Positions 1,216-19,780 of a DNA stretch of 35,726 nucleotides are shown piece by piece (within the stretch, counting starts at the first letter, position 1; the number at the start of each line of letters is the position of its first letter). A model generated the notes under the pieces. That model saw only the letters and a program-made list of their open reading frames with translations, had not been told where the DNA came from and searched no databases. Location: IMG/VR virus record IMGVR_UViG_3300046796_000846, positions 1-35,726 of that record. The stretch is one strand, 5' to 3'. Source of the DNA: a virus. Made by a program: the position numbers and the translations under genes.

Positions 1216-3297
<2,082 letters not shown>

Positions 3298-3307
<10 letters not shown>

Positions 3308-3738
3308 ACACGGACGCGCCTGCGAGCGACTGGACGTTCCGCACGCAGGTCCACTTCAAGGCCGCCGCGAAGGGACGCAGGAGGATGGTCGAGGGCGCGG
3401 TCCCCACGCCGACGCCCGTCGTCTCGGGCCGCGTCCCGCGGATCGCGCGGCTCGTTGCGCTGGCGCACCGCTTCGCGGCGCTGATCGAGTCCGGCGACGT
3501 CCGCGACTACGCCGACGTCGCGCGGCTCGCGGGAGTCAGCAGAGCCCGCGTCTCGCAGATCGCGTCCCTCGCGATGCTCGCGCCCGACATCCAAGAGCAG
3601 CTCCTCGACTTGCCGCGGACGCTGCACGGCCCCGACGCGGTCCTTGAAACGGACGTCCGCCCGATCGCGGCGGTGCCCGAGTGGTCGAAGCAGCGCACGA
3701 TGTGGTGTCGGCTCGCGCAACATGTGCGGACTGCGTGA
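3298..3738 (+). CDS. ParB-like helix-turn-helix protein of the recombinase cassette
   Basis: A 146-residue DNA-binding protein. The HTH lies at about residues 68-92 (YADVARLAGVSRARVSQI), followed by an LAPDIQEQLLDLP segment and a C-terminal RPIAAVPEWxKQRxMW signature, a combination often seen right after serine recombinases. I chose the ATG at 3298 because GGAAGGAG sits about eight bases upstream; an in-frame ATG at 3304 is the alternative. The gene overlaps the recombinase end by 10 bases. It may regulate the recombinase or help direct recombination. It is also the nearest thing to a regulator in the integration cassette, although it does not look like a CI-type repressor. Confidence 0.8.
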
Positions 3739-3762: not shown

Positions 3763-4053
3763 CTAGAGCAGCAACCAGCCGTCGACGCTCCCGTCATCGC
3801 CTACGCGGCAGACGATCCCGGCATCGCGGCTGTAGACCTCTTTCCCGAACAACTCGCGCAACGCGGCGACGCGCCCTTCGCGATCCGGAGGCGCTTTCTT
3901 GCCCGTGTAGTCGGGCGAGCGCTTGACGTCGTTCGAAGCGCTCGGTGGCGGCGCAACTCCGTGGTACGTCACGCGCGCGCCGTCGTGCCCTTGTACGACG
4001 CCGAACCACTCGTAGTGCTTCCCGTTGCCGCCTGATGCGAAGTTGGCTGTCAT
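3763..4053 (-). CDS. Small minus-strand protein of unknown function
   Basis: A 96-residue acidic protein with no recognised family, signal peptide or membrane segment. The ATG at 4053 gives a start MTANFASGGNGKHYEWFG; an in-frame GTG at 4116 would add 21 residues, and neither has a strong ribosome-binding site. It converges on the recombinase cassette with a 24-base gap and diverges from the QueC-like operon, so the roughly 90 bases at 4054-4143 must hold promoters for one or both directions. Its position on the border of the cargo operon makes a regulatory or accessory role possible but unproven. Confidence 0.5.
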   Translation of the reverse strand: MTANFASGGNGKHYEWFGVVQGHDGARVTYHGVAPPPSASNDVKRSPDYTGKKAPPDREGRVAALRELFGKEVYSRDAGIVCRVGDDGSVDGWLLL

Positions 4054-4143: not shown

Positions 4144-4938
4144 ATGGGTAACAGCCACCTCGCGAATGGACTGCCGAAGACGCGCAACTGGCGCGAGGTA
4201 GTCAATCTCGTCGCGAGCAGCGCCGACGCGTCTCAGGTCGCCGCGGCGACACTCGACGCGTCCCTCCAAGGACTCCGCGTCGGCGCCGAGGATCCTGCGC
4301 TGCTGCACGCCGTCTCGCTGCTCTTCAAGATTCCCCTCGCGGCGAAGACGGAGGACTTCGTCGATGCCCTTCGCGACGCGGGTCTCGACGTCGGCCGACG
4401 GCCGACGCTGTTCGACATCACGGCCGCATTCACCGACGCCGTGGATCGTGCGCAGGCGAAGGTCGGCGGGAAGACGGACCTCGGGGAGATGGCTCAACTC
4501 GCTGCGGTCGAGACCATCGAGGGGCTGGTTGGAGAGCGGACCCGCAGCCTGTTCGGCACGACGCCCGAGGATGTCCAGAGGACGTTCGAGAAGTTCGGGA
4601 CGACGGCCCAGATGGGCGGCCTCATGCGCGAGTTCTTCTCGCGCTTCACGCGCCGATACCTGACGAACTTCCTCTCGCGCGAAGTCTCCAACCTCGTCGG
4701 CCAGTCCACGCCTGACCAGCAGCGGCCTTTCGCGAACATCCATGACCACGCAGAGTTCAACCGCGCAATCGAGACGCACTGCCGCGAGGCGAGCGCGATC
4801 GTCGAACGGTTCGCGGGCGAGTGGTTCTCGAAGACGAACTACGAGCAGAACGGCATACCGCGCGAGCTGGTGGCGCGGTTCGTTCCATTCGCCCTCAAGA
4901 AGCTCCGCAAGGAGTTCGAGCGGCGGGCCACGGCATGA
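4144..4938 (+). CDS. QatB-like candidate partner of a QueC-like enzyme
   Basis: A 264-residue, mostly helical protein without membrane segments. It starts Met-Gly-Asn-Ser, so methionine aminopeptidase should expose an N-terminal glycine. The C-terminal third (about residues 165-262: FFSRFTRRYLTNFLSRE, then FNRAIETHCREASAIVERFAGEW, then FALKKLRKE) resembles, from memory, the tail of QatB proteins of the QatABCD anti-phage system. Its stop overlaps the start of the QueC-like gene in an ATGA, so the two are translationally coupled. QueC-like enzymes of some defence systems attach a deazaguanine to the N-terminal glycine of a partner; this protein is a good candidate acceptor, by inference. No QatA ATPase or QatD nuclease gene is nearby. 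Codon use looks less GC-extreme than in the phage structural genes. Confidence 0.65.
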   Translation: MGNSHLANGLPKTRNWREVVNLVASSADASQVAAATLDASLQGLRVGAEDPALLHAVSLLFKIPLAAKTEDFVDALRDAGLDVGRRPTLFDITAAFTDAVDRAQAKVGGKTDLGEMAQLAAVETIEGLVGERTRSLFGTTPEDVQRTFEKFGTTAQMGGLMREFFSRFTRRYLTNFLSREVSNLVGQSTPDQQRPFANIHDHAEFNRAIETHCREASAIVERFAGEWFSKTNYEQNGIPRELVARFVPFALKKLRKEFERRATA

Positions 4939-7010
4939 AGGAGCCGCGCACCGTTCTCTGCGGCGGCGTGCAGGCCCCTCCGGGGGCCGCCTCGGAGGCC
5001 GACCCGATTCGACTCGACCGTCCCGGAAGCGGCGGCAACGTCAACCTGAGCATCTTCGACATCAGCCGGAAGCAAGTGCAACTCCCCGACGCGGTCCTCG
5101 ACCTGCTCGACCTCGCCGCGTACGTGTACTGCGCCGACCAGGCCGTATCTCGCGGCGGCTCCGGAGTCCGCGACATGGGCGCCGGCTGGCGGCGGAGATT
5201 CGCCTTTCACGTTCCGGTGCGCCAACTCGATCTGTGGTCGTCGGCGGAGGTGCTCGGCGCGTTGACGGACGTCCTCGGATTCCTCTCCGAGGACGAGTAC
5301 GAGTTCCACTTCTCGAAGCTCACGGGAACCTCGCGGGCGGACCAGTACTTCGACTTCGCCTCGCAGACGGCCACGCCGACGGACGCCGAAGAGGTGCTTC
5401 TCTTCTCGGGCGGTCTCGACTCCCTCGCGGGCGCGCTGCATGAGGTCGTGGGGCGTGGTCGACGCGCCGTGCTCGTCAGCCACCGCTCGTCTCCGCGGGT
5501 CGATCCTCGACAGAAGGGACTCGCGGCGCGCGTGGCGCAACTCGCCGTCCGCGGCCGCGCGATGCACGTTCCGGTCTGGGCCAACAAGGAGGAGGCGATC
5601 ACTCGCGACTTCACCCAGCGAAGTCGGTCCTTCCTCTTCGCGTCCCTCGGCGTCGCCGTCGCCTCCGTGTTCGGACTTCGGCGCATCCGCTTCTACGAGA
5701 ACGGCGTCACGTCGATCAACTTGCCGATCTCCGAGCAGATTCTCGGTTCGCGTGCGACGCGGACGACGCACCCCAAGACGCTCCTCGGATTCGCGAAGCT
5801 CTTCCGCGTCGTGCTGGGCCACGCCTTCGAGGTTCAGAACCCCTTCCTTTGGAAGACCAAGGCGGACATCGTCACGGTCGCCGCGCGGCACGGCGCGGAC
5901 CTGATCCGGGACACCGTGAGTTGCAGCCGGGAGAGGAAGCGTTCATCGGACAAGCCGCATTGCGGGAACTGCTCGCAGTGCATCGACCGGCGGTTCGCCA
6001 TTCTCGCGGCCGGGTGCGCGCAACGCGATCCCGGTGAACTCTACGGAACGGATTTGTTCAGTGAAGGGCGCGAGTCGATCAAGGATCGAACGATGCTCCA
6101 GTCGTACGTCGGCACCGCCATCGACATCGACGGCATGGCCGACGAGGCGTTCCTCCGCCGCTTCGGCGGCGAAATCAGCCGCGTGGTGAAGTGCGTCCCC
6201 GGTGAGTCGGCCGACAGGGCCGCGGGGCACGTGCTCGAACTCTACAAACGCCATGCACACGGAATCCGAGAGGTCGTCGAGGACCAAGTCCGAGACCACG
6301 TGTCGGACTTGGTGAGCGGAACGCTCTCGAAGGACTCCCTCGTGGTCCTTTCCCTCCAAAAGCAGTTTCGCGCAGAGGAAGCCGCGAAAGCTGCGCAGCC
6401 AACATGGGTCCGCGACCGTGACCTTGGGACGTGGACCATCACCTACGCTGAGAAGTCCATCACGCCCGCGCACTCGGTCGGGTTGGAGTACATCGGACGT
6501 CTCCTGGCTAGGCCGAACACCGACGTCGGGTGCGTGGCGCTCCGACAACTCGTCGCCGAGACATCGCGCGAGCCAGCGGCAGAGGCGTCATCCCGCGGAC
6601 GCGAGCGCGGGGGGCAGGTCGATGCCGACGAGGGCCTCGACAACACAGGCACCGCGATCCCCGCTACGGACAGGACGACGATCGAGGAGTGCAAGGAGCG
6701 GCTGCTTGCGCTGGTCGAAGAACGGCGCGAAGCGGAATCGAGCAACGACGCAGTCGAGCTTGCTCGCATCGACACGGAACGCGAGAAGATTGCGAAGTAT
6801 CTGAAGAGCGTGACCGGCCGACGCGGGAAGATCCGCAACGTCGACCGCGACGAGAGACGGGCGCGCCAGAGCGTCGGCAAGGCGATCGAGCGGAGCATCT
6901 CCCTGATCGAGAAGGCTCACGAAGCCCTCGGGCGCCACCTCCGCAACACGGTGAAGATCAACGGCGTCTGCGTGTACGAGCCCGACGGCACCGTCGTCTG
7001 GCGGACGTAG
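4935..7010 (+). CDS. QueC-like PP-loop protein with unusual C-terminal module
   Basis: A 691-residue protein; ordinary QueC is about 220-240 residues. Residues 155-355 hold a QueC-like N-type ATP pyrophosphatase domain: the PP-loop is SGGLDS (158-163), and zinc ligands are Cys330, Cys343, Cys346 and Cys349 in the family spacing C-x12-C-x2-C-x2-C. The N-terminal 150 residues are a lead domain I do not recognise. Residues 499-690 match a tail I know from large ATPase-type and LuxR-type regulators: GxWTITY, GLEYIGRLLARP, a Glu/Arg-rich coiled coil, then ALGRHLRNTVKINGVCVYEPD. The active-site motifs are intact. Queuosine synthesis is unlikely because no other queuosine gene is present; a defence role with the upstream gene is inferred. 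The ATG at 4935 overlaps the previous stop. Confidence 0.8.
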   Translation: MKEPRTVLCGGVQAPPGAASEADPIRLDRPGSGGNVNLSIFDISRKQVQLPDAVLDLLDLAAYVYCADQAVSRGGSGVRDMGAGWRRRFAFHVPVRQLDLWSSAEVLGALTDVLGFLSEDEYEFHFSKLTGTSRADQYFDFASQTATPTDAEEVLLFSGGLDSLAGALHEVVGRGRRAVLVSHRSSPRVDPRQKGLAARVAQLAVRGRAMHVPVWANKEEAITRDFTQRSRSFLFASLGVAVASVFGLRRIRFYENGVTSINLPISEQILGSRATRTTHPKTLLGFAKLFRVVLGHAFEVQNPFLWKTKADIVTVAARHGADLIRDTVSCSRERKRSSDKPHCGNCSQCIDRRFAILAAGCAQRDPGELYGTDLFSEGRESIKDRTMLQSYVGTAIDIDGMADEAFLRRFGGEISRVVKCVPGESADRAAGHVLELYKRHAHGIREVVEDQVRDHVSDLVSGTLSKDSLVVLSLQKQFRAEEAAKAAQPTWVRDRDLGTWTITYAEKSITPAHSVGLEYIGRLLARPNTDVGCVALRQLVAETSREPAAEASSRGRERGGQVDADEGLDNTGTAIPATDRTTIEECKERLLALVEERREAESSNDAVELARIDTEREKIAKYLKSVTGRRGKIRNVDRDERRARQSVGKAIERSISLIEKAHEALGRHLRNTVKINGVCVYEPDGTVVWRT

Positions 7011-7490: not shown

Positions 7491-8108
7491 GTGCAGATCA
7501 GCGCGCCCTCCCATCTCGTCACCGACCACGACCTCGCGCTCGCGCGCCACCATTCGCTGGGCGCGGTGGGAAAGGCGGGCCTCCGCCGCGACGACGCGGA
7601 CGACCTGGCGCAGCAGGCCGCCCTCGAACTCTGCAACCGCATCGCACGGTTCGACCCGCAGCGCGGTCGTCGCGAGGCCTTCGTCGTCGCCGTGGCGCGC
7701 AACGCGACGGCGCGCGTCATCGAGGAGAGGTCGGCGGCGCGGCGCGACTGGCGGCGGTGCCGCGCGTCGTTGCAGGACGAGATCGCGACCGCGGCCGGCG
7801 CGGCCGTCCCGCGCGCCGACACAATCGACGACGACGACCATGCTCGCCGGACGCGTGGCGCCCGACTGAGTTCGGCTGAACGCGACGACATGCGGCTCGA
7901 CGTACAAGCCGTCGTCGATCGCATGCCCGCCGAACTTCGCGCCGTGTGCGCCGCGCTGTTGCGGCTCGGCCCCTCCGACGCCGCCCGATCCCTCGGACTC
8001 CCGAGGGGCACGTTCTTCGACATCACCCGGCGCGTCCGCGCCCACTTCGAAGCGGCCGGTCTCGACGCCTACGTCGCCGCCGCTGCTCCTGCCGGAGGCC
8101 GCCGATGA
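7491..8108 (+). CDS. ECF-like sigma-70 family factor
   Basis: The 205-residue product has sigma region 2 at about residues 15-88, with the DADDLAQQAALELCNRIARF helix and the AFVVAVARNATARVIEE segment expected for core RNA polymerase and -10 contacts. Region 4 at about 139-190 has an HTH reading PSDAARSLGLPRGTFFDITR, the -35 reader. There is no region 1 or 3, as in ECF sigmas. A phage-encoded sigma placed with early replication genes fits a switch to late transcription. The 31-bp elements before the late blocks carry a GAAC-type upstream box typical of ECF promoters, so this protein is the natural candidate to read them. The GTG start at 7491 has only a weak ribosome-binding site. The end overlaps the primase start. 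Confidence 0.75.
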   Translation: MQISAPSHLVTDHDLALARHHSLGAVGKAGLRRDDADDLAQQAALELCNRIARFDPQRGRREAFVVAVARNATARVIEERSAARRDWRRCRASLQDEIATAAGAAVPRADTIDDDDHARRTRGARLSSAERDDMRLDVQAVVDRMPAELRAVCAALLRLGPSDAARSLGLPRGTFFDITRRVRAHFEAAGLDAYVAAAAPAGGRR

Positions 8109-10492
8109 ACGCCGACTTCGACCCCGCGCTCGTGCGCGAGAACTTCCCCGCCGAACTCCGTGGTCTGCCGCAGTGGCTCGTCTGGCGGCTGGAGCAGGTC
8201 CCCGGCAAGGACAAGCCGACGAAGATCCCCTACTCGCGCCGAGGGTCGAAGGCGAGCAGCACGAACGCGAAGACGTGGTGCTCGTTCGACGAGGCGCTCA
8301 CGGCGCAGGCGGCCGGGCGCTACGACGGCGTCGGCTTCGTCTTCGCCGACGGCGTGTACACGGGCATCGACCTCGACCATTGCCGCGACGCGGCGACGGG
8401 AGCGATCGACCCGTGGGCGAAGGCGATCCTCGACAAGGTCTCCAGCTACTCGGAGGCGAGTCCGTCCGGCACCGGCGTCCACCTGATCGTCCGGGCGACG
8501 CTTCCTGGACCGGGGCGAAACAAGCGCCGCCTCAACATCCCGGGGGCTCACCCGGAAGCAGCGATCGAGATGTACGACCGCGGCCGGTACTTCACCGCCA
8601 CGGGCGACCGCCTGATCGAGTACCCGCCGGAAATCGAGAACCGCCAGGACGCAGTGACGGCGCTGTACGCGCGCATCGAGTCCGCGCCGCCGAAGGAGAA
8701 GAAGTCGGCGAAGCCGTCGTCCCGGCCGCCCGACATCTCCGACACGCAGATCGTCGAGAAGGCGATGGCCGCGAAGAACGGCGACGCGTTCCGTCGCCTG
8801 TGGGGCGGCGACACGAGCGGCCACGGCGGCGACGACTCCGCGGCCGACCTCGCTCTCTGCGACTACCTCGCGTTCTGGTGCGGGCCCGACGTCGCGCGGA
8901 TCGACCGGTTGGTCCGGCAGTCGGGGCTCTATCGCGAGAAGTGGGACCGCGAGGACTACCGCGACCGGACGATCGCGAAGGCGCTGGAGGGGCGGACCGA
9001 GTTCTACGGCGTCCCGCGCGCGACGGCCCCGTCGAGCACGCCCGCGGGCGAGTCCGAGGACCGCGACGTCGTCGACGACGAATCGGACGCCGACGCCGCG
9101 CCGAGTTCCATTCCGACACCGCGCCGGGACGTCGATCTCAAGTTCCAGCCGCAGACCGACGCCGGCGCCGCCGAGAGAATCGCGGCGCTCTTCGGCGAGC
9201 ACGTCCGTCACGTCGAGGGGTTCGGCTACTTCCTCTGGGTCGGCAAGCGGTGGCAGCGGGACCGGCACGGCGTCCTGACCCAGTGCGTGATCGTCGCCGC
9301 GCGGGAGACCTACCGGCAGGCGGCCGACCTCGCCGAGGACCGCAAGAAGCCGCTGTCGGACTACGCCAGGAAGTGCGAGCAGGAGCCGCGCATCCGCGGA
9401 ATCCTGAAGATCCTCGCGACGATGCCGGAGATCGCGCTCGACGTCGCCGCGCTCGACGCGGACCCCGACCTCCTGAACGTCGACAACGGCATCGTCCACC
9501 TGCCGACGAAGACGCTGCGGCCGCACGACCCGAAGGCGTACTGCACGAAGCTCGCGCCCGTCGCGTACCGCCCGGACGCGCCGGCGCCGACATGGATCGA
9601 GTTCCAGAAGCAGGTCGCGTGCAACGACGCCGAACTCGTCGCGTTCAAGCAGCGGGCATACGGCTACTCGTCGACGGGCCAGACGAGGGAGCAGTGCGTC
9701 TTCATCGGCCACGGCAAGGGCAGCAACGGCAAGACGACCGAGAGCAACGCCGTGCGATTCGTCCTCGGCGACTACGTGAAGAACGCCGACTTCGCGACGT
9801 TCACGAGCGGCAAGCGCCACGGCGGCCCGCGCTCCGACGTCGTGCGTCTCGTCGGCGCGCGGCTCGTCACCGCGCTCGAGGGCGACGAGGGCCAGCATCT
9901 CGACGAAGCGTTCTTGAAGGGCATCACCGGCAACGACCCGCAGACGGCGCGCGACATGTACGAGTCGGAGATCGAGTTCGTCCCGGTGCTGAAGCCGTGG
10001 CTCTTCTCGAACTTCACGCCGCGGATCAAGGGGACCGACGAGGGCATCTGGCGGCGCATCCGCCTGATCCCGTACCTCGCGCACTTCCCGAAGGACAAGC
10101 AGGACAAGAAGCTCCCCGAGAAGCTCCGCGCCGAGGCCGAGGGCATCCTCGCCTGGATCGTCGAGGGCGCGTTCCAGTGGTACGCGAAGGGCCTGCCGGA
10201 CGTCTCGTCCGTCGACGCCGCGACGAAGGACTTCCGCGAGAGCCAGGACGCCCTCGGGCAGTTCATCGAAGAGCGATGCGTGCAGCGGACCGACGCCGAC
10301 GTCGGCTCTGCCGCGCTCTACAAGGCCTACCGCGCGTGGTCGGAGTCGGCCGGCGAGGAGGCGGTGCGCGACCGCGAGTTCAAGGCGCTGCTGATCGACC
10401 TGGGGTACGTCTGGAAGAAGGAGAACGACGGGGCGAAGTGGTTCGGTCTCGAACTGAAGGGCCTCTTCCAGAACCAGTCGGTGACGGCATGA
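8105..10492 (+). CDS. AEP primase-polymerase / SF3 helicase
   Basis: A 795-residue replication protein. The N-terminal primase-polymerase domain shows archaeo-eukaryotic primase motifs GIDLD (residues 87-91, metal-binding aspartates) and SGTGVH (121-126). A linker rich in Asp/Pro lies near residues 310-340. The C-terminal D5/P4-type superfamily 3 helicase has Walker A GHGKGSNGKTT at about 535-545, and downstream KPWLFSNFTPRIKG and EGIWRRIRLIPY segments resembling motif C and the arginine-finger region. It should prime and unwind phage DNA from the origin. The ATG at 8105 overlaps the sigma-factor stop (ATGA), and its own stop overlaps the next start. Confidence 0.93.
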   Translation: MNADFDPALVRENFPAELRGLPQWLVWRLEQVPGKDKPTKIPYSRRGSKASSTNAKTWCSFDEALTAQAAGRYDGVGFVFADGVYTGIDLDHCRDAATGAIDPWAKAILDKVSSYSEASPSGTGVHLIVRATLPGPGRNKRRLNIPGAHPEAAIEMYDRGRYFTATGDRLIEYPPEIENRQDAVTALYARIESAPPKEKKSAKPSSRPPDISDTQIVEKAMAAKNGDAFRRLWGGDTSGHGGDDSAADLALCDYLAFWCGPDVARIDRLVRQSGLYREKWDREDYRDRTIAKALEGRTEFYGVPRATAPSSTPAGESEDRDVVDDESDADAAPSSIPTPRRDVDLKFQPQTDAGAAERIAALFGEHVRHVEGFGYFLWVGKRWQRDRHGVLTQCVIVAARETYRQAADLAEDRKKPLSDYARKCEQEPRIRGILKILATMPEIALDVAALDADPDLLNVDNGIVHLPTKTLRPHDPKAYCTKLAPVAYRPDAPAPTWIEFQKQVACNDAELVAFKQRAYGYSSTGQTREQCVFIGHGKGSNGKTTESNAVRFVLGDYVKNADFATFTSGKRHGGPRSDVVRLVGARLVTALEGDEGQHLDEAFLKGITGNDPQTARDMYESEIEFVPVLKPWLFSNFTPRIKGTDEGIWRRIRLIPYLAHFPKDKQDKKLPEKLRAEAEGILAWIVEGAFQWYAKGLPDVSSVDAATKDFRESQDALGQFIEERCVQRTDADVGSAALYKAYRAWSESAGEEAVRDREFKALLIDLGYVWKKENDGAKWFGLELKGLFQNQSVTA

Positions 10493-16599: not shown

Positions 16600-16825
16600 G
16601 CGGATCGAGGCTACCGTTCGCGCGAACCGCATGAACTGGAATGGTGCGAGTCCTCAGCCGGCGCAATGGTTGTCGCGAGGTCGTGTCCAAGTCTGAGACG
16701 CGCTGCGCAAGTCAAGTTCGGCGGCGCGCGTCGAATCCTGACTCCACCTTGATTCCACGGCGGCGACGACTGGCTTTCGTCCGCGTCAGAGCGAATGTCC
16801 GTGCACGCTCAAGGAGGGCGCAGAC

Positions 16826-17221
16826 ATGGCGAAGAAGCAGAAGTCGACGAAGGCGGGGAATTCCCGCAAGGCCTCGAAGGTCCCGGCGACCGCGCGGACG
16901 CCGAAGGCCCCGCGGACGCGCGAGCGCGACCCGCGGCTCCCCGCTGCGGGGACGACGCTGACGCGCGAGTACAAGGGCAAGACGATCCGCGTGTCGGTAC
17001 TCGACGAGGGGTTCCGCTGCGACGGAAAGGACTACCGCTCACTCTCGGCGCTGGCGTCGGAACTCTGCGGGAACCCCGCGAACGGCTTCCTCTGGTTCGG
17101 GCTGATCGAGCGGAAGATCGCGACGCCGAAGCGGAAGCCCGCGAAGTCGAAGGAGAAGTCAGGTGCGCCGAAGGAGACCGCGCCGGAGACCGCCCCGGCG
17201 GCCGCGTCCGCGACGACCTGA
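16826..17221 (+). CDS. Second DUF2924 family protein
   Basis: A 131-residue protein with a Lys/Arg-rich tail at each end and the conserved DUF2924 block at about residues 35-93 (DPRLPxxGTTLTREYKGK, VSVLDEGF, YRSLSALA, NGFLWFGL). It lacks the helical N-terminal half seen in the 171-residue paralogue beside the recombinase. A strong AAGGAGG lies about 10 bases upstream of the ATG. Its basic ends suggest nucleic-acid binding. It follows a cargo gene and is the only plus-strand gene before the terminator at 17246. Confidence 0.8.
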   Translation: MAKKQKSTKAGNSRKASKVPATARTPKAPRTRERDPRLPAAGTTLTREYKGKTIRVSVLDEGFRCDGKDYRSLSALASELCGNPANGFLWFGLIERKIATPKRKPAKSKEKSGAPKETAPETAPAAASATT

Positions 17222-17692: not shown

Positions 17693-17706
17693 ATGCTCCG
17701 CGCAGG

Positions 17707-17737
17707 TGGAACGAGTCGCCCGCGCGCCCACACTCGA
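17707..17737 (+). promoter_or_regulatory. Late-promoter element 2 (portal block)
   Basis: TGGAACGAGTCGC, 12 variable bases, then ACTCGA. The upstream 13-mer matches the consensus at 12 of 13 positions; the downstream hexamer is the most divergent of the five. The portal ATG at 17742 lies five bases beyond, the same spacing as at the HNH gene. Confidence 0.55.
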
Positions 17738-17741
17738 TGGG

Positions 17742-19007
17742 ATGGCCCCTTCGCGCCGCGGCGTCGGCTCCCGGCTCCTCTCCGGGATCCGCGCGTTCCT
17801 GACCTCGGAAGATCCGCCGGAGTCCTTCCAGCGGTGGCCCGGCGTCAGCGCGCCGTCGCTCGCGGGCGTGAACGTCACCGACCAGACGGCGCTGCGCGTG
17901 ATGACGGTCCTCTCCTGCGTGCGCGTACTCGCCGAGTCGGTCTCGACGCTGCCGATGGCCGTCTTCGAGCGGCTGCCCAACGGCGACAAGCGGCCCGCGC
18001 CGGACCATCCGCTGAACGAGATCCTCGACGTCCTCGCGAACCCGGAGAACACGGCGCTTGCCTCCCGCGAGACGCAGATGGCGCACGTCCTCCTGCGCGG
18101 CAACTCGTACGCGCGCGTGCTGCGCGACGGCGGCGGCGACGTCCGCGAGGTCTGGCCGATCGCCCCGAACCACTGCTTCATCGAGCGGCCGAAGCCCAAC
18201 GCCCCGCTCGTGCTGCGCGTGTCACAGCCGGGCGTCGCGCCCGAGACGCTCTCGATGGACAAGGTCTGGCGCGTCCACGGGCTCTCGTGGGGCGGCGTCA
18301 CGGGCCTGACGCCGATCGGTCTCGCGCGCGAATCGATCGGCGTCGCGATGGCCTTGGAGCAGGGCACCGCGTCGGCGCTGCGCAACGGCGCGCGGATCGC
18401 CGGCATCGTCGAGCACCCGACGACGATGGAGGACGACGAGTACAAGCGGTTCAAGGACTCGTGGAACGAGGCGTACGCGGGCGCCACGAACGCCGGGAAG
18501 ACGGCCGTCCTGGAGGCAGGCGCGAAGTTCAACAAGGTCTCGATGACCTTCGAGGACTTGCAGTTCCTCGAGCTGAAGAAGTTCCAGGTCGCCGAGATCG
18601 CGCGCCTCTTCCGCGTGCCGCTGCACATGCTCTACGACGACAAGAGCCAGCCGCGCGCCAACATGGAGCAGGCGTCGCTGGAGTTCGCGATCTACTCGCT
18701 GCGCCCGTGGCTCGTGCGGATCGAGCAGACGATCGCGCGCGACCTGCTCTCGCCCGCCGAGCGCCGCCGCTACTTCGTCGAGCACAACGTCGCGGGCCTG
18801 CTCCGCGGCGACTTCGCGACGCGCATGCAGGGCTACGCGCTCGCCCGCCAGTGGGGCTGGGTGTCGGTGAACGACATCCGCCGCCTGGAGAACCTCAACG
18901 GCATCGGACCGGAGGGCGACGTCTACCTCCAGCCCATGAACATGGTCCCCGCGGGGACGACCGTCGCCGTCGATCCCGAGACGACGACGCAGAAGGAGCC
19001 CGTATGA
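17742..19007 (+). CDS. Phage portal protein, HK97 family
   Basis: The 421-residue portal subunit forms the dodecameric DNA channel at one capsid vertex. Family features: SVSTLPMAVFERLPNG near residue 69, HPLNEILDVLANP, LLRGNSYARVLRD, GxVEHP-type wing and LEFAIYSLRPWLVRIEQ towards the stem region. I chose the ATG at 17742 since the longer GTG start at 17706 overlaps late-promoter element 2. The end overlaps the protease start in ATGA. Order portal-protease-capsid is standard for HK97-like heads. Confidence 0.93.
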   Translation: MAPSRRGVGSRLLSGIRAFLTSEDPPESFQRWPGVSAPSLAGVNVTDQTALRVMTVLSCVRVLAESVSTLPMAVFERLPNGDKRPAPDHPLNEILDVLANPENTALASRETQMAHVLLRGNSYARVLRDGGGDVREVWPIAPNHCFIERPKPNAPLVLRVSQPGVAPETLSMDKVWRVHGLSWGGVTGLTPIGLARESIGVAMALEQGTASALRNGARIAGIVEHPTTMEDDEYKRFKDSWNEAYAGATNAGKTAVLEAGAKFNKVSMTFEDLQFLELKKFQVAEIARLFRVPLHMLYDDKSQPRANMEQASLEFAIYSLRPWLVRIEQTIARDLLSPAERRRYFVEHNVAGLLRGDFATRMQGYALARQWGWVSVNDIRRLENLNGIGPEGDVYLQPMNMVPAGTTVAVDPETTTQKEPV

Positions 19008-19780
19008 GTCCCCCGACGAACGGCCGTGGGTTCGCGCTGGTCCGCGGCGAGGGAGCAGCCGCCGCATCGGCGTCGATGTACGTCTACGACGTCATCGGCC
19101 TCGATCCCTGGACGGGCGGCGGCGTCACCGCGAAGAAGGTGATCGACGACCTCGCGGCGCTCACGGGCGTCACGGCCCTCGACGTCCGGGTCAACAGCCC
19201 GGGCGGCGACGTGTTCGACGGGATCGCGATCTACAACGCGCTCACGCGTTTCGCGGGCGACGTCACGGTCCACGTCGACGGACTCGCCGCGTCGGCCGCG
19301 TCGATCGTCGCGATGGCGGGCGGCCGGACGCTCGTCGCCGAGAACGCGATGATGATGATCCACCGCCCGTGGACGACGTGCAGCGGCGACGCCGCCGACA
19401 TGAAGCACACGGCGGCGACCTTGGAGAAGGCGTGGACGGGACTCCTCGCCACGTACGCGCGCCGCACGGGCCGCCGCGCCGCGACGTTCGAGCAGCGGGT
19501 CGCCGACAGCGGCGGCGAGTGGTGGCTCACCGCGGAGGAGGCGGTCGCCGAGGGGCTCGCCGACGCCGTCGAGACGCCGCCCTCCTCGGGCGTGAAGGCG
19601 TTCGGGCTCTCGCGCTTCCAGCGCGTGCCGGAGCGGCTCGCCGCGAGCGCCGAGAAGGACGCCGCCGCACCGCGGCAGTCCACGCCGATCGTGCTGGAGA
19701 TCGCGACGCCGCGCGTCGTGCGCGTCGACCGCGCGGCGCAGCGCCGTCGCGAGGTCGAACTTCTGCGCGCGCAGATTTGA
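19004..19780 (+). CDS. ClpP-like (S14/S49-type) prohead protease
   Basis: A 258-residue head maturation protease that should cut the scaffold delta domain of the capsid protein. It has the ClpP fold signatures NSPGGDVFDGIAIYNAL (about residues 64-80), the nucleophile in GLAASAAS (Ser97) and the catalytic histidine in MIHRPW (His120). A basic/Glu-rich tail after residue 210 may act in scaffolding. The TGA stop lies inside late-promoter element 3. Confidence 0.92.
   Translation: MSPPTNGRGFALVRGEGAAAASASMYVYDVIGLDPWTGGGVTAKKVIDDLAALTGVTALDVRVNSPGGDVFDGIAIYNALTRFAGDVTVHVDGLAASAASIVAMAGGRTLVAENAMMMIHRPWTTCSGDAADMKHTAATLEKAWTGLLATYARRTGRRAATFEQRVADSGGEWWLTAEEAVAEGLADAVETPPSSGVKAFGLSRFQRVPERLAASAEKDAAAPRQSTPIVLEIATPRVVRVDRAAQRRREVELLRAQI

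What the first reader, a model, noticed from the sequence alone, without database searches (positions are those of the whole stretch)
4144..7010. Two-gene QueC-like operon: candidate minimal deazaguanine-based defence system
A 264-residue protein is translationally coupled (ATGA) to a 691-residue protein with intact SGGLDS and four-cysteine zinc motifs of QueC. No other queuosine or archaeosine gene is present. QueC-like proteins occur in QatABCD and type IV CBASS defence systems, where a deazaguanine is reportedly joined to a protein partner. Here only a partner-like protein and the enzyme are present, with no QatA ATPase, QatD nuclease or CD-NTase nearby. The operon sits in a typical cargo slot, between the integration and replication modules. 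A stand-alone pair of this kind is not one I recognise.
Basis: partly seen in the sequence, partly recalled or inferred. Interest (0 to 1): 0.9.

Follow-up and report, generated by a model that had tools for sequence, protein, structure and literature searches.

The report
Stand-alone QatB–QatC pair on phage
A phage carries a two-gene module whose proteins match the core of the bacterial QatABCD anti-phage system, but in a separate, widespread lineage that has no QatA or QatD and has a predicted DNA-binding domain on the enzyme; it occurs even in bacteria that appear unable to make the deazaguanine thought to be the enzyme's substrate.

Summary
Protein 1 (4144-4938) and protein 2 (4935-7010) overlap by ATGA. 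Protein 2 is a QatC across residues 19-450, with the QatC-specific Thr/Thr pocket. Protein 1 has the QatB fold (Z 12.0 against solved QatB; next unrelated match 6.3) and a conserved N-terminal glycine.

The pair is not an oddity. A QatB-like gene precedes the QatC-like gene in 118 of 122 related loci, with no QatA/QatD operon in any. In a tree these QatC proteins split cleanly from nine QatABCD QatC proteins. Unlike QatB (MGTS plus a 30-90-residue tail), the partner starts MGH-RLG-LP with a short tail. The enzyme has an extra C-terminal module: a winged helix in most members, a DpnII/MboI-type nuclease domain in Leptospira. In phages it is optional cargo: 2 of 80 phages with the same integration module carry it.

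However, QatB+QatC alone was already shown to defend (PMC13279940), and the deazaguanine part is doubtful: four cultured hosts lack detectable QueC, QueE and QueD. Best reading: a new stand-alone variant of Qat, probably an ATP-dependent modifier of the partner's N-terminus used against phages. No function was tested.

The parts
4144..4938 (+). QatB-like partner protein, 264 aa (P0001)
   Evidence: Predicted all-helical model (pLDDT 88, pTM 0.87); best PDB match QatB 9y01_A, Z 12.0, rmsd 3.9, 196 of 215 residues, next unrelated row Z 6.3. Homologue directly upstream of the enzyme in 118 of 122 loci.
4144..4191 (+). N-terminal motif MGNSHLANGLPKTRNW: acceptor-type Met-Gly on a short, low-confidence tail
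   Evidence: Relatives read MGHxRLGxLPxTRxW; Gly2 in all 60 rows of A6, seen before any start was chosen. Information content of residues 1-16 exceeds the rest of the protein (3.3 v 2.4 bits) although the model is unsure there (pLDDT 51 for residues 1-10).
4935..4938 (+). ATGA stop/start overlap (translational coupling)
   Evidence: 4-base overlap in 43 of 115 pairs, other short overlaps in most of the rest.
4935..7010 (+). QatC-like enzyme with C-terminal module, 691 aa (P0002)
   Evidence: PADLOC QatC 2.5e-56; NCBIfam QatC 204 bits, under its 280-bit cut-off; PDB QatC chains E 1e-30.
4989..6284 (+). Region homologous to the whole of QatC, including its N- and C-terminal extensions (residues 19-450)
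   Evidence: hhalign A1 v nine QatABCD QatC: probability 100%, E 1.2e-52.
5406..5423 (+). SGGLDS ATP-pyrophosphatase loop (residues 158-163)
   Evidence: S158, G159, G160, D162, S163 invariant in A1.
5718..5774 (+). QatC-specific loop N262-H279 (contacts QatB in solved QatC) and pocket motif T275-x-T277-x-H279-P280
   Evidence: Aligned to solved QatC over 'ng..sinlp..ilgsratrtthp'; T277, H279, P280 invariant, T275 nearly so. Role of loop and threonines: PMC13279940.
5922..5981 (+). Zinc site C330-x12-C343-G-x-C346-x2-C349
   Evidence: All four cysteines invariant in A1.
6396..6989 (+). C-terminal module: OmpR/PhoB-like winged helix (6396-6569 plus 6840-6989) split by an inserted helical hairpin (6672-6812)
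   Evidence: AlphaFold2 model of 6291-7007 (pLDDT 83); VIA-align rows dominated by response-regulator DNA-binding domains, Z up to 8.1; Trans_reg_C in 3 of 25 relatives, best 1.8e-4. Same module at the C-terminus of an actinobacterial 1140-aa protein with a P-loop motif.
1718..3307 (+). Flank: large serine recombinase (integration), preceded by DUF2924-like frame (705-1724) and followed by small HTH-like protein (3295-3738)
   Evidence: Pfam Resolvase 6e-42, Recombinase, Zn ribbon; DUF2924 profile 2e-52 and small-protein profile 2e-22.
8105..10492 (+). Flank: replication primase/helicase (NrS-1 HBD + D5_N)
   Evidence: Pfam D5_N 2.7e-29, NrS1-1_pol-like_HBD 5e-23.

Best explanation
The two genes are a stand-alone QatB-QatC pair, a separate lineage of the catalytic core of the Qat anti-phage system carried as optional cargo by temperate phages and also found in bacterial chromosomes. 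Shown here: QatC-type enzyme, QatB-type partner fold, conserved gene coupling, conserved N-terminal glycine, absence of QatA/QatD, extra C-terminal module. Inferred: the two proteins form a 1:1 complex; after Met removal the partner's Gly2 enters the enzyme's active site; the enzyme uses ATP to activate a carboxylated small molecule and joins it to that N-terminus; the winged helix lets the complex bind nucleic acid and so may do the job that the DNA-binding ATPase QatA does elsewhere; the outcome is protection of the lysogen against other phages or mobile elements. What small molecule is used is open; a deazaguanine from the host is not well supported.
For: QatC identity. QatB fold. Pair in 118 of 122 loci; three of the other four are contig edges. 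From the partner's side, in a sample of about 600 genomes drawn evenly from two phyla, 8 of 10 matches have the enzyme next door and the other two lie in short or interrupted stretches. No QatA/QatD operon in any of 122 loci; one weak opposite-strand NTPase hit (L100). Tree: 59 stand-alone rows apart from 9 QatABCD rows, 99/94 support, 100% of bootstraps. Patchy: 3/398 and 7/199 genomes in two phyla. Cargo: pair in 2 of 80 phages with the same integration module and in none of the 8 nearest by recombinase; the same slot holds a GmrSD restriction enzyme in L160. Copies near a type III restriction system (L097) and defence-type helicases (L041, L080). Published: QatBC alone blocks phage lambda, and Gly2 and the active site are required (PMC13279940).
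Against: No defence or modification assay exists for this lineage. Sequence-only comparison of partner with QatB is weak (hhalign probability 42%), so partner homology rests on fold plus synteny. The partner lacks MGTS and the long tail. The slot also carries M78-peptidase/HTH regulators, so a regulatory role is possible. Proximity to defence genes was not tested against a control set.
Confidence: 0.62

Rival explanations
1. A prophage regulator: the pair with its winged helix controls the phage's own lysogeny or early genes (or immunity to the same phage) rather than defending against others.
For: It sits next to the recombinase, where lysogeny regulators usually lie; the same slot in sibling phages holds HTH+M78 peptidase proteins of the ImmA/CapP kind (L156, L167); the enzyme carries an OmpR-like DNA-binding domain.
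Against: Optional: absent from 78 of 80 sibling phages. 32 of 80 genome copies show none of the phage-backbone genes, some beside restriction or defence genes. Leptospira carries a DpnII/MboI-type nuclease domain instead of a winged helix. The catalytic site is fully kept, and in Qat the same site is needed for defence (PMC13279940).
Confidence: 0.17
2. A QueC-like enzyme of small-molecule or nucleic-acid chemistry: it makes a preQ0-type base for phage DNA or tRNA, with the partner as a helper.
For: QueC Pfam domain above its cut-off; phages are known from general knowledge to carry 7-deazaguanine DNA pathways.
Against: QueC Tyr/Asp pocket replaced by Thr/Thr; no QueD-type PTPS or TGT in the record; published QatC cannot replace QueC (PMC13329287); hosts without QueC, QueE and QueD keep the pair.
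Confidence: 0.06
3. A decayed QatABCD operon that lost its outer genes.
For: QatA and QatD are dispensable for defence against some phages (PMC13279940).
Against: Stand-alone rows form one side of a well-supported branch apart from QatABCD rows, span many phyla and share their own motif and C-terminal modules.
Confidence: 0.04

Closest known systems
QatABCD anti-phage system (QatB-QatC core; PDB 9y01/9y02, 9vlk, 9zee)
   Same: Enzyme homologous over the full QatC with all published QatC motifs, including the Thr/Thr pocket and QatB-binding loop; partner has the QatB fold, N-terminal Met-Gly, and lies directly upstream.
   Different: No QatA or QatD; separate branch of the QatC tree; partner starts MGH-RLG-LP (MGNSHLANGLP here) with a short tail instead of MGTS plus 30-90 disordered residues; enzyme has about 150-240 extra C-terminal residues, winged-helix in most; below the NCBIfam QatC cut-off (204 v 280 bits).
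Type IV CBASS (Cap9 deazaguanylating its CD-NTase, with Cap10)
   Same: QueC-family ATP-using enzyme plus a partner with an N-terminal glycine.
   Different: Partner has the QatB fold; pocket is Thr/Thr, not Tyr/Asp; no TGT-family (Cap10) protein in the record.
Canonical QueC (preQ0 synthesis)
   Same: ATP-pyrophosphatase core, SGGxDS and four-cysteine zinc site.
   Different: Substrate motifs replaced, N- and C-terminal extensions, partner protein, no queuosine genes nearby.
OmpR/PhoB-type regulators and actinobacterial ATPase regulators with the same C-terminal module
   Same: Winged helix; the module recurs at the end of an 1140-aa Embleya protein with a P-loop motif.
   Different: Here it is fused to QatC and split by a helical hairpin.

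Membership tests
QatABCD | QatC enzyme with QatC-specific motifs (D63 equivalent, D-x4-R, W-x-R, R-x-R-x3-F, E-x-G, T-x-T-x-HP, P-x4-TK, CGxCxxCxxRR) | tested here: met
   D56, D68, R73, W85, R87, R229, R231, E255, G257, T277, H279, P280, P303, T308, K309, C343, C346, C349, R352, R353 invariant, F235 and T275 nearly so; motif list from PMC13329287. The D-x4-R to W-x-R spacing differs from E. coli.
QatABCD | QatB partner (helical fold, directly upstream of qatC) | tested here: met
   Z 12.0 to QatB 9y01_A; ATGA-coupled. Sequence profile comparison alone is weak.
QatABCD | QatB N-terminal MGTS with a 30-90-residue disordered tail | tested here: not met
   MGNSHLANGLPKTRNW, helix 1 begins at residue 16; nine QatB all MGTS. 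Met-Gly itself is kept.
QatABCD | QatA KAP-family ATPase | tested here: not met
   No KAP NTPase in the record; none beside the pair in 122 loci except one weak opposite-strand hit.
QatABCD | QatD TatD-family nuclease | tested here: not met
   No TatD in the record; none in 122 loci.
QatABCD | QatC falls among QatABCD QatC in a tree | tested here: not met
   Separate side of a 99/94 branch.
QatABCD | Protects against phages; needs QatB Gly2 and QatC active site | not testable with these tools
   Needs plaque assays.
Type IV CBASS | CD-NTase partner | tested here: not met
   Partner has QatB fold; no CD-NTase family hit for either protein. The rest of the window was not scanned for CD-NTase.
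Type IV CBASS | Cap9 Tyr/Asp deazaguanine pocket | tested here: not met
   T275/T277 at these positions (PMC13279940).
Type IV CBASS | Cap10 TGT-family protein | tested here: not met
   No TGT match in the record.
Canonical QueC | Pathway context (QueD, QueE, TGT nearby) | tested here: not met
   No PTPS or TGT in the record; QueE not searched in the record.
OmpR/PhoB-like winged helix (C-terminal module) | Fold of the DNA-binding domain | tested here: inconclusive
   Foldseek E above 0.1 but top rows are OmpR-family domains; VIA Z up to 8.1, rmsd 2.8, 93 aligned; Trans_reg_C hits in 3 relatives.

The most novel reading that the evidence does not exclude
A stand-alone branch of Qat immunity in which QatC joins something other than a 7-deazaguanine to the partner's N-terminal glycine, with swappable C-terminal DNA-binding or nuclease modules taking over the role of QatA and QatD; because the pair lives in hosts that lack the deazaguanine pathway, it could reveal the unknown Qat substrate.
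Probability: 0.35. Interest if true: 0.85.

Novelty: new variant of a known kind. Interest (0 to 1): 0.7.

Why it matters
What QatC attaches to QatB, and how that stops phages, is an open question stated by the authors of the structure paper (PMC13279940), who could not reconstitute the reaction. This lineage is a naturally minimal version: two genes, a short partner tail, and a built-in module that probably binds DNA. Hosts that keep the pair but lack detectable QueC, QueE and QueD argue that the donor need not be CDG, which can be tested directly. Present annotation is likely to miss the pair, because it scores below the NCBIfam QatC cut-off and has no QatA/QatD.

Tried and rejected
Partner against Pfam, NCBIfam, PADLOC and PDB sequences: nothing useful. 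Sequence-profile comparison of the partner with QatB: weak; settled by fold. Foldseek alone ranked QatB only 14th, E 0.41; the aligner's second look separated it clearly. Idea that the C-terminus is specific to this phage: rejected, the same module is in many relatives and in actinobacterial ATPase-type proteins. Idea that the pair is a core phage gene: rejected. Idea of a decayed QatABCD operon: rejected by the tree. The Gly2 conservation was checked for circularity: starts in later alignments were picked with a pattern that requires Gly, so the claim rests, made without it. L053 is the one related locus with room upstream but no partner found. Window partner gave no hit in plasmid records; the Leptospira plasmid pair was reached through the enzyme.

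Full report
What is there. The window is a 35.7-kb virus record. Two genes overlap by ATGA: P0001, 264 aa, 4144-4938, and P0002, 691 aa, 4935-7010. The first start codon of the P0001 frame is 4144, so its N-terminus Met-Gly-Asn is not an annotation choice. The only QueC-family match in the record is P0002; KAP NTPase, TatD, TGT and PTPS/QueD are absent. Upstream lie a DUF2924-like frame, a large serine recombinase and a small HTH-like protein; downstream a sigma70-region-2 protein and a D5/NrS-1-type primase, then terminase and capsid genes.

The enzyme is a QatC. PADLOC gives QatC at 2.5e-56; NCBIfam QatC scores 204 bits, below its 280-bit cut-off; the best solved structures are QatC chains. 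Profile against profile, residues 19-450 align to the whole of QatC including both extensions (probability 100%, E 1.2e-52). Published QatC motifs (PMC13329287) are present and invariant or nearly so in 21 relatives, though the spacing from D-x4-R to W-x-R differs. Most telling, T275 and T277 sit where QatC has the threonines that replace the Tyr/Asp that read deazaguanine in QueC and Cap9 (PMC13279940), and the loop that contacts QatB (N265-H282 there, N262-H279 here) has the same length.

The partner is QatB-like. Sequence search finds nothing, and profile comparison with nine QatB is weak. The predicted structure (pLDDT 88, pTM 0.87) has an unsure N-terminus and eleven helices. In the second-look alignment the two QatB structures stand alone at the top (Z 12.0 and 11.6, 196 and 194 residues), the next row being 6.3. 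The tool warns that helical models can reach Z 13 by chance, so the gap to the next rows and the identical gene order carry the weight. The first 16 residues are more conserved than the rest (3.3 v 2.4 bits) in a region the model cannot fix, as expected for a peptide that docks elsewhere. Relatives read MGH-x-RLG-x-LP-x-TR-x-W; the window copy is deviant (MGNSHLANGLPKTRNW) but keeps Gly2.

A family, not an oddity. Scans gave 42 viral and 80 genome loci. The partner lies directly upstream in 118 of 122; three of the remaining four are contig ends, L053 is the true exception. Overlap of the two genes is the rule. No locus has a Qat operon; one weak NTPase hit lies on the other strand (L100). Searching from the partner's side in 398 and 199 genomes drawn evenly from two phyla found 3 and 7 carriers; eight of the ten matches show the enzyme next door, the other two are short or interrupted stretches. 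A careful tree puts 59 stand-alone enzymes on one side of a branch (99/94; 100% of bootstraps) from nine QatABCD enzymes. Two long-branched rows make the deepest order unsure.

The C-terminal module. After the QatC part, most relatives end in GYRLNP-type tails typical of OmpR-like winged helices, with weak HTH hits. The window type, shared by many chromosomal relatives, is modelled as a winged helix split by a helical hairpin. Foldseek and VIA-align lists are dominated by OmpR/PhoB-family DNA-binding domains (Foldseek E not significant; Z up to 8.1), and three relatives hit Trans_reg_C. The same module ends an 1140-aa Embleya protein with a P-loop motif. In Leptospira noguchii the module is a DpnII/MboI-type nuclease domain instead (9.4e-11). 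Others have unrelated short tails. Swappable ends on a fixed core are typical of conflict systems (general knowledge).

Cargo. 40 of 42 viral and 48 of 80 genome loci show parts of one phage backbone (recombinase, DUF2924, small HTH-like protein, AAA_24, helicase). In 80 viral loci fetched by that recombinase, 2 carry the pair; none of the eight nearest to the window's recombinase does, though several of those contigs are short. The slot in other phages holds a GmrSD restriction enzyme (L160), M78-peptidase/HTH proteins (L156, L167) and unknown modules. Outside this backbone, copies lie near a type III restriction-modification system (L097) and defence-type helicases (L041, L080). These are examples, not an enrichment test.

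Hosts and the substrate. Of 46 host genomes, 37 have canonical QueC and 9 do not. In 14 tested, the QueE model hits 5 of 5 QueC-positive and 0 of 9 QueC-negative genomes, and seven of the nine also lack PTPS. Among these are four cultured species (Antarctobacter heliothermus DSM 11445, Roseisalinus antarcticus CECT 7023, Aquamicrobium defluvii DSM 11603, Seohaeicola saemankumensis DP4N-5), all with an intact TGT, so the absence is not just poor assembly. CDG, the QueE product and Cap9 substrate, is therefore probably not made there. PTPS is also missing from three QueC-positive hosts, so only QueC and QueE are diagnostic; a QueE of another type could have been missed, and the pair could be inactive in those hosts.

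Mechanism. Shown by others: P. aeruginosa QatB and QatC form a 1:1 complex that suffices against lambda, and Gly2, the ATP loop, the threonines, both extensions and the loop are needed (PMC13279940); Cap9 joins a deazaguanine to an N-terminal glycine (PMC11996544). Inferred here: the same N-terminal conjugation in this pair, with the C-terminal module giving contact to nucleic acid. Confidence by step: QatC membership 0.95; QatB fold 0.9; stand-alone lineage 0.97; defence role 0.7; N-terminal modification 0.6; deazaguanine as donor about 0.35.

Verdict. A new stand-alone variant of a known kind. In the library searched I found no description of it; the two QueC-family papers read describe QatC only in the QatABCD setting, one noting that only about a third of QatC-cluster genes neighbour qatA or qatD, which this lineage may partly explain.

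Noticed in passing
L125:7938-9803: Leptospira noguchii plasmid: the QatC-like enzyme carries a DpnII/MboI-type restriction-nuclease domain at its C-terminus, directly after a QatB-like partner beginning MGHERLG.
   Followed up: partly
L134:4240-6191: Rhizobium leguminosarum plasmid: 193-aa hypothetical protein coupled to a 459-aa QueC-like enzyme, followed by an XRE regulator; a very long branch in the tree, perhaps a third QueC-like pair.
   Followed up: no
L171:5071-7317 and L196:5183-7331 (also L156, L200, L205, L206, L209, L211, L212): The same phage slot repeatedly holds a single ~749-aa protein or a coupled ~413+~320-aa pair; those scanned have no Pfam or PADLOC match.
   Followed up: partly
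17693-19777: 695-aa protein with a ClpP-type protease domain at its C-terminal end, just upstream of the capsid gene; possibly a portal-protease fusion.
   Followed up: no
L234:1109-4528: Embleya 1140-aa protein with a P-loop motif ends in the same module as the window's QatC; a related module is in Nonomuraea (L235). No Pfam family covers it.
   Followed up: partly
3763-4053, minus strand: Plausible 96-aa ORF (P0003) divergent from the pair; unknown.
   Followed up: no
16742-17218: A second frame in the window also matches the DUF2924 profile (2e-20), within the structural gene region.
   Followed up: no
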